From Symbiodinium natans (lineage: Eukaryota; Sar; Dinophyceae; Suessiales; Symbiodiniaceae): a DNA stretch of 64,000 bases. The notes under the pieces are model-generated. The model worked only from the letters and a program-made list of their open reading frames with translations, did no database searches and was not told the DNA's origin. The stretch spans positions 342,513-406,512 of the forward strand of contig CAJNDS010002057.1 of the NCBI GenBank assembly GCA_905221605.1, in the 5' to 3' direction. This document shows, piece after piece, positions 1-64,000 of this stretch. Position numbers and translations under genes: made by a program. Numbering within the stretch: position 1 is the stretch's first letter; each line of letters starts with the position of its first letter.

Positions 1-3000
1 AAACCCTAAACCCTAAACTGTCAGCCCACCAGAACGCTTGGGCTGAGGTCTGATCACGCGCGAGGAGGCCCGCGTCTCCAAGGATGTGGAGACGCGGCCG
101 CGTTGTTTGGGGTTTAGGGTTTAGGGCTAGGGTTTAGGGTTTAGGGTTTAGGGTTTAGGGTTTAGGGTTTAGCGTTTAGCGTTTAGCGTTTAGGGTTTGC
201 GGCATGGCATTCCCTAAGCTCAAGCCTACAATGTGGATTACACCCTCTTTTTTTTTTGGGGGGGGGGGGGGGGCATGATTCGGAGGACCCCTGCTTGGGG
301 AAACGCCCGTATGGGGGTTTAGGATTTGCGGTGAAGGGTCTCCTCTTGCCGGCAAGAGACCCCTACACCCGCTAAGGAGAAGCGACTGCTGAGAAGCAAG
401 GCGGGGGGGGGTCTTCCTAGTTGGGGTTTAGGCGTTTAGGGTTTGTGGGGGGGGGGGGGGGGTGATCCTTAATGTAAGGGAGTCAATGGTGCCTTTTCTA
501 AGAGACCCCTTTCTTTCTAAGGGTGTGTTGTTATTCTCAAAGCTGCCATCCATCTGGGACCTTCTAGCCAGGGGTACCTAGGTACCTACAAGGGCCCTGA
601 ACGAGGGGCATCTAGAGGTGCGTCCGATGTACAGAGAGACCCTCAAGAAGACATGATATCCTTTAGGGGGGGTTCTCTATCTTGCAGTCCTTGTGTGCTG
701 TCGATGATAATACGGAGGCTTCTTGGGGTACTCCAAAAGGGCCCATAGTTTCCCGAATGCCCCACAGGGGTTCAGGATTTGGGGGTTATCTTGTCCTTGA
801 AGGCTCTAGAAAGCTTTAACAGGGACGTTTTGGGTCTCTTTGGGGTTTTCAGGGTATCTAGGCGTTTATAGCGTCTTCGGGGTTATAGGGTTTACAGGGC
901 TTATCGGGTTATAGGGTTTCTCGGGCTTTGTAGGCGTTATAGGGCTTAGAGGGCACACTGGGAGGGTAAGGCCTGCCTGTAGCTCTACATGAAGCAGGGT
1001 TTATATTACCGTTATTGGTGAGTGTATGTAAGGTTCCTTTTTAATATTCCTGAGTGTATATGCCGGGTGTCCTTTTGGGGGTACAAGAAAAATATACCCT
1101 ACCTCACCTGCAGGGCAGAGGACGAACCCGTGGGCTGTCACAACTTTATGAGCTTCACCTACGAAACTGCAGGAGAAAAAAAAGCTACACGTAGACCTTA
1201 GTTTGGTGCACAGGGTCGGCTTCTGGGGTTTAACCTTCAAGCCTCACCCCAAACCTTAAGCCCTAAACCCTAAGCCCTAAACCCCAAGCCCTAATTAAAC
1301 CCTAAACCCTAAACCCTAAACCCTAAACCCTAAACTCTAAACTCTAAACTCTAAACTCTAAACTCTAAACTCTAAACTCTAAACTCTAAACTCTAAACTC
1401 TAAACTCTAAACTCTAAACTCTAAACCCTAACCCACGACCTGCGCAAGTCGGCCTTCATGCAGGTAGAGCTGGATTGGGTGCAGCGCAAAGTGCGCCCCA
1501 TCCAGAAGGTCATCAAGCATCTGATCAAGGACAAGGCAAAGCGCCGAAGTTCAAAGAATTTCGGGTTTGGGGTTTTGGGTTTTGGGTTTAGGGTGTAGGG
1601 TGTAGGGTTTAGGGTTTAGGGAAAACGTGTTATGGAAGGCTGAGAGATTGGATCCGAGGCGGTTGACAAGGCTCCCCTTGGCCCTCAACCCCAAATTCCA
1701 ACCCCCAAACCGTAGTTGCCTTCAGTTCCCTGCTCAGGCTGCTAGAGCCGTGCTTCTTTTAGGGGTTAGGGTTTAGGGTTTATTAGAGTTTAGGGTTCAG
1801 GGTTGGCTCTGTCTCTGCATGTGCCTTCGGATGGTACAGACGGCAAGTAAACCAACGTCTGAGACCTGACAGCACGCTTGACTCTGAGAGCTTCACAATT
1901 CGGGTTTAGGGTTTAGGGTTTAGGGTTTAGGGTCTTAACCCAGTATACATAAACAAAAAAAACCGCAACCCCCAACAAGGTACCCTGCAAGTTGTCGTCA
2001 CTTGAAACCTGCTGGGAATTCGTACAAAAAGCAAGCAAACAACACGAAACGCCAAGCCGTATGCCTCCTTGCGCCGTGGCAAGGCCATTGATCCAGACGT
2101 GACCCGATATCTCGAAGACGTCGAGGATCACCTCAACCTTTTCCTAGAGGAGGCAGCTGTTGTTGAGGTTTTGATGCGACGTGCTTTCTGTAGGGTGCCT
2201 GGAAGCCCTTTTGACTTAGTAAGTAAGGTTAGTAAGGTGGGCTATGATTGTGAGGATGATAATAGGGTTTCCAGGGATGCTCAGTGGGGCTTCGTACCCC
2301 TGAAGGTTGTACCTTTGGGTTTGGGAACCCTTGTGACAAATCCTCCAGCGGCATGCAAGGGCCATATTAGGAGGGAACCTTGTGGGGGTACATCCTGGAA
2401 CCTCTTAGGGCTACATCCTTAGGGTTCCGATTATGACTCCCCTGATACATGGCAACTCTCTTCATGTGACAATCTTCTTCTCCGTAGGAAATTCAGGGAT
2501 TCGGTTCCCTTGCACAAAATGGGGTTGACCTAAGTAGTGGGCCTCCATCATGATCATAGCCTACGCCACTCCCCCACAACAAAAAGGGGGATGCGAGGTA
2601 CCTAGTGCTCCACGAAACCCTAAGCCCACAACCACTTGGGTTTTCACAGGTTCCGGACTTTGGGCTTCGGGTTTGAGGTTTAGAGGTTTAGGCTTATGCC
2701 GTGGCTCATAGGGTTTATTTCGGGTTCATCAGCTTTAAGCAGGCTACCAGAGCTCAATCAGGCTGAAGGGTCCAATCTCAAGTCCTGTAGATCTGATGAG
2801 TGGTTTAGGGTTTAGGGTTTAGGGTTTAGGGTTTAGGGTTTAGGGTTTAGGGTTTAGGGTGCAGGTAAGCCGCATCATTGGAGTGTGTAACTCCTTGCGG
2901 GATGAGGTGACTTGGCAGCCCAGTGGCACCCTTTTGCCTGTTTTGCTTCACGGTTCCCTAAACCCTAAACCCTAAACCCTAAACCCTAAACCCTAAACCC

Positions 3001-63849: not shown

Positions 63850-64000
63850 CAAGCAACGGCTTGCTTGCTGGCTCAAGAAGGCGCAAGCCTGCCAAAACCA
63901 CGACGTTTTCCAGGGTGGTCCGTCACTCCGTTCGGGCAGACGCTCGGCGCCGTCCTCCTCTTATAAGCCTTCTGGAGACGGAGCGAGCTACTCGACGACT
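63850..64000 (+). CDS. Probable exon cut by the window end
   Basis: Reads LKQRLACWLKKAQACQNHDV then FQGGPSLRSGRRSAPSSSYK to the last base. Basic and serine-rich. Acceptor not fixed; the gene continues beyond the window. Confidence 0.4.

What the first reader, a model, noticed from the sequence alone, without database searches (positions are those of the whole stretch)
1..64000. Introns bracketed by inverted telomere-type arrays
Exon islands tend to be preceded by (CCCTAAA)n and followed by (TTTAGGG)n on the coding strand (examples: 7987, 18942, 30315, 34921, 39328, 44555, 53734, 54549). Each intron so begins with UUUAGGG and ends with CCCUAAA repeats, which can pair and bring its two splice sites together. 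Random interstitial telomere insertions would show no polarity relative to exons. Exceptions (27136, 32843, 34051, 59165) show it is a strong tendency, not a rule. Intron folding by telomere-type inverted repeats is, to my knowledge, not an established feature.
Basis: partly seen in the sequence, partly recalled or inferred. Interest (0 to 1): 0.92.

Follow-up and report, generated by a model that had tools for sequence, protein, structure and literature searches.

The report
Telomere-type repeats bracketing algal exons
In a stretch of DNA from an alga (a Symbiodinium dinoflagellate), repeats of the kind that cap chromosomes sit just outside many exons and mostly point away from them, so their place and direction follow the splicing layout; why is not yet known.

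Summary
The window is a Symbiodinium genome, probably S. natans, with two plus-strand genes: a CorA transporter (8 exons found) and a very large extracellular-domain gene (63 exons found). I fixed 71 exons, 61 of them by protein homology, and retested 69 introns. Within 30 nt of a splice site the nearest array is TTTAGGG after 17 of 18 donors and CCCTAAA before 23 of 27 acceptors (40/45 concordant; shuffled mean 22.4). Arrays are also concentrated there: up to about 31% coverage 30-60 nt from splice sites, against 2-7% in interiors. CorA alone shows no tendency.

Folding of each intron by its own two arrays is not supported: the two ends are uncoupled, and own arms pair no better than swapped arms. 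Array amounts are instead coupled across the exon, and predicted folds favour exon-bridging stems on average. My best explanation is separate, orientation-dependent splicing compatibility at each exon edge, acting on arrays that arise near splice junctions; that step is inferred. Introns with inverted simple repeats at both ends are already reported in dinoflagellates; my searches found no report of telomere-type arrays in this role.

The parts
47..5127 (+). CorA-type Mg transporter gene, 8 exons located here (47-97, 1464-1535, 2084-2152, 2865-2906, 3089-3121, 3966-4052, 4421-4487, 5063 to about 5127 with stop)
   Evidence: tblastn of 12 homologs incl. Symbiodinium necroappetens corA; boundaries, first donor set by hand
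7439..62849 (+). Very large extracellular-domain gene (cysteine-rich, one TSP1-type and one EGF-like stretch), 63 exons located here, median exon 69 nt, median intron 677 nt
   Evidence: tblastn of P0013 (Symbiodinium natans), P0014 (Symbiodinium sp. CCMP2592) and P0015 for 53 of the 63; ten by eye or Pfam (listed); boundaries; TSP1 match; EGF matches are below Pfam's cut-off
7821..8189 (+). Bracketed exon: CCCTAAA array 7821-7970, exon 7987-8046, TTTAGGG array 8079-8189
18834..19131 (+). Bracketed exon: CCCTAAA array 18834-18928, exon 18942-18995, TTTAGGG array 19032-19131
39282..39542 (+). Bracketed exon: CCCTAAA array 39282-39308, exon 39328-39405, TTTAGGG array 39414-39542
44435..44749 (+). 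Bracketed TSP1 exon: CCCTAAA array 44435-44546, exon 44555 to about 44656 (end set by hand), TTTAGGG array 44673-44749
   Evidence: exon supported by Pfam TSP1, not by the orthologs; dropped in the strict test
53628..53906 (+). Bracketed exon: CCCTAAA array 53628-53701, exon 53734-53788, TTTAGGG array 53803-53906
54478..54739 (+). Bracketed exon: CCCTAAA array 54478-54527, exon 54549 to about 54630, TTTAGGG array 54637-54739
2911..3088 (+). Introner (intron 2907-3088): terminal inverted repeats CTTGGCAGCCC/GGGCTACCAAG, 4-bp duplication GTGA, CCCTAAA array inside
55817..56003 (+). Introner with 4-bp duplication GTAC; a CCCTAAA array lies between two copies of its 3' terminal repeat (GGGCTACGAAG ending 55921 and GGGCTACTGAG ending 56003)
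   Evidence: read from the printed sequence and the list of terminal repeats
58609..59049 (+). Introner 58609-58908 with 4-bp duplication GTTG; CCCTAAA array 58928-59044 lies between a copy of the acceptor region and the acceptor in use
8549..8704 (+). TTTAGGG array 8609-8654 flanked by two near-identical 44-bp copies (8549-8592 and 8661-8704) of the exon end plus donor region
   Evidence: the second copy also seen by tblastn at 8653-8700

Best explanation
Telomere-type heptamer arrays have arisen many times in the introns of these Symbiodinium genes, mostly 20-100 nt outside exon edges, and they persist in the orientation that each splice site tolerates or profits from. After the 5' splice site UUUAGGG is kept: it is G-rich, could form an RNA G-quadruplex, and resembles UAGGG-type splicing-factor sites. 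Before the 3' splice site CCCUAAA is kept: it contains no AG, GT, GC or GA, so it offers no decoy splice sites. The two preferences act separately at each exon edge, and amounts co-vary across an exon, as expected if exons of about 70 nt are recognised as units (exon definition). Shown here: position, polarity, no detectable coupling of the two intron ends, coupling of amounts across the exon. Inferred: that splicing selection is the cause, which factors act, and how the arrays arise (introner activity or break repair with target duplication).
For: Polarity near splice sites: 17/18 and 23/27 within 30 nt; 31/36 in the strict set. Exact-array coverage: T 31.5% against C 10.2% at 40-60 nt after donors, C 31.2% against T 7.5% at 30-40 nt before acceptors, 2-7% for either type beyond 200 nt. 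Arrays near sites are longer: medians 46 (donor-near T) and 51 (acceptor-near C) against 17-23 in interiors. After masking degenerate arrays (a loose mask; 13% chance coverage per type in the reversed control) the remaining GC skew within 100 nt is -0.20 to +0.15, so the polarity is mostly a property of the arrays. The ends of one intron are not detectably coupled. Amounts are coupled across the exon: rho 0.34-0.45, p 0.001-0.007 for exact arrays, n = 67. Presence across the exon: 24 both, 12 C only, 10 T only, 21 neither, odds ratio 4.2, p = 0.007; strict set rho 0.47, Fisher p = 0.02, n = 58. RNA-strand G4 motifs cover 34% at 30-60 nt after donors against 8% before acceptors. [quoted passage not shown] UAGGGA(U) is the selected hnRNP A1 RNA motif (PMC3794818, passages).
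Against: Arrays of the disfavoured type near sites are long too (acceptor-near T median 59, n = 9; donor-near C median 33, n = 14), so length goes with exon proximity rather than with orientation. Four T arrays end within 30 nt of an acceptor, two of them within 4 nt (before 2865 and 60348). AG is only mildly depleted before acceptors: 0.044-0.057 in the last 200 nt against about 0.07. Weaker donors do not carry more T array (rho +0.22, p = 0.08, the wrong sign for compensation), whereas published G4s favour weak sites. In that paper coding-strand G4s are enriched before 3' splice sites too, and one passage puts the largest strand difference there, unlike here. At 30-60 nt after donors the nearest array is C in 11 of 24, so the 5' preference by nearest array is sharp only in the first 30 nt. 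T array after an exon also rises with exon GC (rho 0.41, p = 0.0006), which I cannot explain. CorA alone shows no tendency. There are no RNA data; selection is inferred from position.
Confidence: 0.45

Rival explanations
1. Intron folding: UUUAGGG at the start and CCCUAAA at the end of an intron pair and bring its splice sites together, as complementary AC/GU repeats do in fish introns.
For: The polarity allows it: 24 of 64 array-bearing introns have first array T and last array C, against 3 with the reverse, and 5' and 3' ends are on average the most complementary pairing tested. Own-intron bridge above 20 expected pairs in 12 of 48 folds. Fish precedent: PMC9198270 and PMC7404189, passages; the primary paper PMC4691745 was not looked up.
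Against: No detectable coupling of orientation, presence or amount between the two ends. Arms of the same intron pair no better than swapped arms. Exon-bridging pairs are more numerous on average.
Confidence: 0.15
2. Exon bridging: the CCCUAAA array before an exon pairs with the UUUAGGG array after it and encloses the exon in a loop, marking it for exon definition or promoting exon skipping or circular RNA.
For: Array amounts are coupled across exons and not detectably within introns. Across-exon pairs are about 21 per fold against 12 across the intron.
Against: Orientation is not coupled across exons beyond the separate preferences (CT 21, CC 9, TT 2, TC 1 within 60 nt, p = 1). Paired repeats on both sides of an exon are linked to skipping and back-splicing in other organisms (PMC9198270, passages), which would harm a gene of more than 60 exons. 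The difference between across-exon and within-intron coupling is barely significant (0.34, bootstrap 95% interval 0.01-0.65), and some regional effect exists (T5(i)-T5(i+1) 0.22-0.26, p 0.03-0.07).
Confidence: 0.15
3. Exon-polar insertion: the polarity is mutational. Breaks or introner insertions at exon edges receive telomere repeats on the exon-side end, so every array points away from the exon like the cap of a small chromosome; splicing plays no part.
For: Outward-pointing repeats on both sides are what telomerase addition to an exon-side DNA end would give (inference). A T array at 8609-8654 is flanked by 44-bp copies of the exon end and donor region. C arrays at 55.9-56.0 kb and 58.9-59.0 kb lie between copies of an acceptor region. 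Introners with 4-bp duplications are present, and 8 of 69 introns have identical first 4 nt of intron and of next exon (permuted mean 1.5, p = 0.0002). Arrays near sites are long in either orientation.
Against: A break has two ends; the intron-side end should give the opposite polarity equally often, and close T-C neighbours are rare (gap under 60: 3 of 54). Flank repeats scoring at least 9 were found for 1 of 32 donor-side and 4 of 32 acceptor-side arrays, some of low complexity; mean scores only slightly exceed swapped flanks (6.95 against 6.13 +/- 0.32; 6.33 against 5.85 +/- 0.17).
Confidence: 0.2
4. Chance or annotation artefact: exons were noticed because of the arrays, and the bias is a selection effect.
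For: ORF-score exon sets gave a weaker bias that vanished for the highest-scoring ORFs. At least one of 500 shifted tables reached concordance 0.82.
Against: Homology-placed exons give the strongest bias, also in the strict set. Shifted tables average 0.50 and never reach the observed number of array-bearing ends (maximum 45 against 79).
Confidence: 0.05

Closest known systems
Dinoflagellate introner elements in the sense of introns with simple inverted repeats at both ends: Amoebophrya (PMC7789003) and Prorocentrum cordatum with comparison species (PMC10666404)
   Same: Dinoflagellate introns with complementary sequence near both ends and short direct repeats at the junctions; the Amoebophrya authors note that the inverted repeats could join exon boundaries. 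The rule used for P. cordatum (inverted repeats of 8-20 nt and direct repeats of 3-5 nt within 30 bases of each intron end) could count TTTAGGG...CCCTAAA introns (my inference).
   Different: Here the complementary sequence is a telomere-type tandem array, usually 10-100 nt inside the intron, often at one end only, and coupled across the exon rather than the intron. No telomere-type repeat in this role was named in the passages I saw.
Symbiodinium microadriaticum introner family 1 (TIRs, 4-bp target duplication; PMC9860276, Fig. 2B legend)
   Same: Elements at 2911-3088, 55817-56003 and 58609-58908 have terminal inverted repeats and 4-bp duplications; where the element ends at the exon, the donor lies in the duplication and the acceptor in the element.
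   Different: Three introns carry it; most array-bearing introns do not. I did not compare sequences with the published family.
Fish introns with AC and GU repeats at opposite ends (Lin et al. 2016, seen only through PMC9198270 and PMC7404189)
   Same: Complementary simple repeats at opposite intron boundaries.
   Different: In fish, minigenes support an effect on splicing (PMC7404189); here the two ends are statistically independent and there is no experiment.
Interstitial telomeric sequences inserted during double-strand break repair (PMC7215372, start of abstract in the listing)
   Same: Telomere-unit arrays at internal sites.
   Different: Density, exon proximity and polarity relative to exons; insertion into an array-free site could not be tested here.
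Plant telo boxes, short interstitial telomere motifs (PMC3022908, passages)
   Same: Same heptamer family, non-random position in genes (5' UTR, first two introns).
   Different: Telo boxes are single 8-mers near promoters; here longer arrays flank internal exons throughout a gene.

Membership tests
Introner elements (TIR type) | Terminal inverted repeats at the element ends | tested here: inconclusive
   Met for 3 intron elements and one intron-internal copy; not general: best 12-nt terminal match of own ends 7.44 against 7.48 permuted, 68 introns
Introner elements (TIR type) | Short target-site duplication at the junctions | tested here: met
   8 of 69 introns share the first 4 nt with the next exon, permuted mean 1.5, p = 0.0002; junction direct repeat 3.19 against 2.76 permuted, p = 0.001, 68 introns. 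A minority of introns; several boundaries are inferred
Introner elements (TIR type) | Many copies of one family across genes of the genome | not testable with these tools
   Own genome could not be searched; 9 copies of the 5' motif (up to 5 substitutions) in the window, all on the + strand
Introns folded by complementary end repeats (fish AC/GU type) | Complementary repeats at opposite ends of the same intron more often than expected from each end alone (my statistical reading of the type) | tested here: not met
   Odds ratio 1.4, p = 1, 26 introns; own against swapped arm energy p = 0.48, 61 introns
Introns folded by complementary end repeats (fish AC/GU type) | Splicing depends on pairing (minigene mutagenesis) | not testable with these tools
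   Experiment
Interstitial telomeric sequences | Tandem telomere units at non-terminal sites | tested here: met
   960 exact units, 176 exact arrays of 2 or more units, between exons of two genes; TTTAGGG is the dinoflagellate telomere unit (PMC11453091, passages)
Interstitial telomeric sequences | Inserted at a break, with an array-free ortholog | not testable with these tools
   I obtained no genomic DNA of another Symbiodinium
Symbiodinium natans gene structure | Donors mostly GC, then GT and GA; acceptor AG followed by G | tested here: met
   GC 46, GT 15, GA 7, CC 1 of 69; first exon base G in 64 of 69. My site model favoured GT and GC donors and a first exon G, so this is not independent. 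Published S. natans: GC 58%, GT 23.6%, GA 18.4%, AGG acceptors 97.1% (PMC10666404 table)

The most novel reading that the evidence does not exclude
Outward-pointing telomere-type arrays are a general exon-marking layer of the Symbiodinium natans genome: TTTAGGG after and CCCTAAA before exons act as a repeat-made splicing code that defines tiny exons in long introns, recruited from telomere repeats and spread exon by exon.
Probability: 0.3. Interest if true: 0.88.

Novelty: new variant of a known kind. Interest (0 to 1): 0.72.

Why it matters
The large gene here has more than 60 exons of about 70 nt in introns of about 680 nt, with mostly GC donors. A repeat whose position and strand are tied to splice sites is a directly testable candidate for part of how such exons are recognised. 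It also bears on introner counts: rules that call introners by inverted repeats near both intron ends could count these arrays although the two ends behave independently. And it would show telomere-type DNA being placed inside genes in a way that follows gene structure.

Tried and rejected
Exon-free look: neighbouring C then T blocks have a gap peak at 90-150 nt (29 of 54), more than T then C (15 of 54). A lead only; some C-T gaps are intronic, for example 4187-4359, in CorA intron 4053-4420.

ORF-scored exons: concordance 65-69% within 60-150 nt for scores above 8 and above 9, but 38-55% for scores above 13 and above 14. On short exons the ORF score hardly separates the strands, so it was replaced by homology.

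AG exclusion as the sole cause: rejected (mild AG depletion, four T arrays within 30 nt of acceptors). Head-to-head telomere fusion scars as the origin of introns: rejected, because the T and C arrays of an intron are mostly far apart and uncoupled. Arrays as the splice sites themselves: mostly rejected. In the boundary list one chosen donor starts inside an array (54640), where a donor 9 nt upstream with a junction repeat is likelier, and one acceptor (29612) is the edge of an array unit. Ancestral short introns made wholly of arrays: not supported; 2 of 15 introns under 400 nt show T then C. Compensation for weak splice sites: not seen.

Scans for similar DNA elsewhere: viral contigs gave 6 loci with one to three arrays each and no relative of P0013. 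Rfam (gathering threshold) and tRNA searches found nothing in the window.
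Full report
WHAT THE WINDOW IS. The window is 64 kb, 51% GC, with 476 TTTAGGG and 484 CCCTAAA units. A CorA-type peptide read from the first 5 kb finds Symbiodinium and other dinoflagellate proteins. Pieces of a second gene find P0013, an S. natans protein named ACT1 for which the database lists no Pfam domain. Of the 17 best tblastn matches of P0013, 6 are 100% identical; the others are 62-96%, with the differences mostly at alignment ends or where a match runs into an intron. 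P0014 and P0015 come from other Symbiodinium records (P0015's record names no species, and I infer the genus from its likeness to P0014). I take the genome to be S. natans or a very near relative. P0002 (CorA) and P0015 (second gene) bear names of one scaffold (s4810), which agrees with the two genes being neighbours. Telomere unit (TTTAGGG)n in dinoflagellates: PMC11453091, passages.

EXON TABLE. tblastn of the homologs located 61 of the 71 exons in frame on the plus strand: 8 for CorA and 53 for the large gene. Several short ones are weak alone (E up to 3.3) and were kept because they are colinear with the protein. Ten exons were added by eye or by Pfam and are dropped in the strict test. 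Boundaries were chosen, with reading phase matched, by a site model that uses only AG, G[TCA] and neighbouring bases at the junction, not the arrays. The first CorA donor (97) and the exons at 44555, 45824 and 50286 were then adjusted by hand. This gives 69 introns. Donors are GC 46, GT 15, GA 7, CC 1; the first exon base is G in 64 of 69, in line with published S. natans figures (PMC10666404 table), though my model favours such sites. Some boundaries are uncertain by several nt, and exons may be missing.

THE POLARITY TEST. Array blocks are exact 10-mers of either strand merged over gaps of up to 25 nt. Nearest block within 30 nt: donor T/C 17/1, acceptor C/T 23/4. Within 60 nt: 30/12 and 35/7. 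Within 100 nt: 33/16 and 36/9. Any distance: 40/24 and 45/19. Label shuffles reached the observed value in 0 of 1000 at each cut-off. Strict set, 59 donors and 60 acceptors: within 30 nt 12/1 and 19/4, 31 of 36 concordant, shuffled mean 17.9 and maximum 27; within 60 nt 53 of 72, mean 35.9, maximum 48. Only consensus boundaries, 26 donors and 45 acceptors: 23 of 24 within 30 nt. 500 shifted exon tables give concordance 0.50 +/- 0.09, maximum 0.82, against 0.76 observed at 60 nt. Where the nearest array lies beyond 100 nt its orientation is random: 16 of 34 (by subtraction). Against: CorA alone shows nothing (7 of 14 ends), and 5 introns have no array.

THE POSITION EFFECT. Coverage by the favoured type rises from 2-6% in the first 10 nt to about 25-31% at 30-60 nt and falls to 2-7% for either type beyond 200 nt. 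In shifted tables 30.7 +/- 4.9 ends (maximum 45) have an array within 60 nt, against 79 observed. Arrays near splice sites are longer than interior ones, in either orientation. After masking degenerate arrays too, the remaining skew near intron ends is small. So the feature is an array preference for exon edges as well as a polarity.

IS IT INTRON FOLDING? Four tests show no coupling within introns: orientation, amount (rho 0.08-0.13 for exact arrays), presence (20 both, 15 T only, 16 C only, 18 neither; odds ratio 1.5, p = 0.47; strict odds ratio 1.8, p = 0.41, 54 introns), and duplex energy of own against swapped arms (61 introns of at least 300 nt). Across exons the amounts are coupled: rho 0.34-0.45 for exact arrays and 0.25-0.44 for degenerate ones, while C3(i)-T5(i+2) is 0.13-0.29 and T5(i)-T5(i+1) 0.12-0.26. 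Across-exon presence odds ratio is 4.2, p = 0.007; strict 3.8, p = 0.02. This was found among seven pairings at four widths and two array definitions, so it needs an independent test. Windows 150-300 nt into the same intron are not significantly coupled to the end windows (0.21 and -0.01, 36 introns), so plain proximity does not explain it. Orientation is not coupled across exons. Folding 48 of the introns (300-1150 nt, with flanks) gives 21.1 and 21.5 expected pairs across the exons and 11.9 across the intron; the numbers of folds above 20 pairs are 14, 17 and 12.

HOW THE ARRAYS MAY ARISE. Three introns carry an introner with terminal inverted repeats (CTTGG.AGCCC / GGGCTAC..AG type) and a perfect 4-bp duplication, and a fourth copy lies inside an intron. 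This is the arrangement described for an S. microadriaticum family (PMC9860276 legend). At 55.9 kb and 58.9 kb the CCCTAAA array lies between two copies of the element's 3' end or the acceptor region, and at 8.6 kb a TTTAGGG array lies between two 44-bp copies of an exon end with its donor region. These are consistent with array insertion that duplicates a splice junction, but they are a minority: flank repeats of score at least 9 in 5 of 64 arrays tested, some of low complexity.

MECHANISM. The simplest account of polarity without end-to-end coupling is separate compatibility at each splice site. CCCTAAA holds no AG, GT, GC or GA and is favoured before acceptors. TTTAGGG is G-rich and fits the G4 motif in RNA: RNA-strand motifs lie within 150 nt of 35 of 69 donors and 14 of 69 acceptors, template-strand motifs of 15 and 36. 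In a published study the enrichment of G4 motifs is 5.56-fold (coding strand) against 2.38-fold (template) at the 5' splice site and 3.01 against 2.78 at the 3' splice site (PMC9065059, passages). UAGGG also resembles the hnRNP A1 motif (PMC3794818, passages); no such protein was sought here. Across-exon coupling fits exon definition. The step from position to function is inference, and the length of disfavoured arrays near sites leaves room for an insertion bias.

NOVELTY. Introns with inverted simple repeats at both ends are reported in dinoflagellates (PMC7789003 and PMC10666404, passages). Complementary end repeats are reported in fish (through two reviews, passages). I found no report of exon-bracketing telomere-type arrays in the listings of searches, which cover an open-licence library only. 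Roy et al. 2023 (Curr Biol), known to me from the reference lists, was not looked up.

LIMITS. One window, two genes, no RNA, no second genome. The genome search service did not answer (seven identical requests).

Noticed in passing
2911-3088, 55817-56003, 58609-58908, 24839-24931: Introner family with terminal inverted repeats and 4-bp target duplications (GTGA, GTAC, GTTG, TCAT); nine copies of its 5' motif (up to 5 substitutions), all on the + strand.
   Followed up: partly
35646-36422: BTB/POZ single-exon ORF (Pfam E = 2.8e-11) inside the intron 35329-37913 of the large gene, same strand; may be a nested retrogene.
   Followed up: no
15372-17136: Two adjoining long ORFs (265 and 309 codons) that read as a membrane protein, inside intron 14130-17998, same strand; only a weak FtsX match below Pfam's cut-off.
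   Followed up: no
7439-62849: Orthologs of the large gene are named ACT1 in public records (P0013, P0014): P0014 and P0015 are listed with PF00022 (actin, name recalled) besides the ectodomain part, P0013 with no Pfam domain, so the gene models appear fused or mis-split.
   Followed up: partly
8549-8592 and 8661-8704: 44-bp duplication of an exon end and donor region on the two sides of a TTTAGGG array.
   Followed up: partly
27509-27681, 20305-20511, 12964-13089, 1331-1420: Arrays of variant units (TATACCCTA, TAAACCCTA and TTAGGGTTT 9-mers; CTCTAAA 7-mers), i.e. local homogenisation of telomere-like variants.
   Followed up: no
window exons of both genes: The amount of TTTAGGG array after an exon rises with the exon's GC content (rho 0.41, p = 0.0006, 67 exons); CCCTAAA before it does not (rho 0.16).
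   Followed up: no
L034 1211-1302: A contig filed in a bacterial bin has a CCCTAAA array followed after about 20 bp by TTTAGGG arrays, downstream of a coding-looking stretch; it may be eukaryotic.
   Followed up: no
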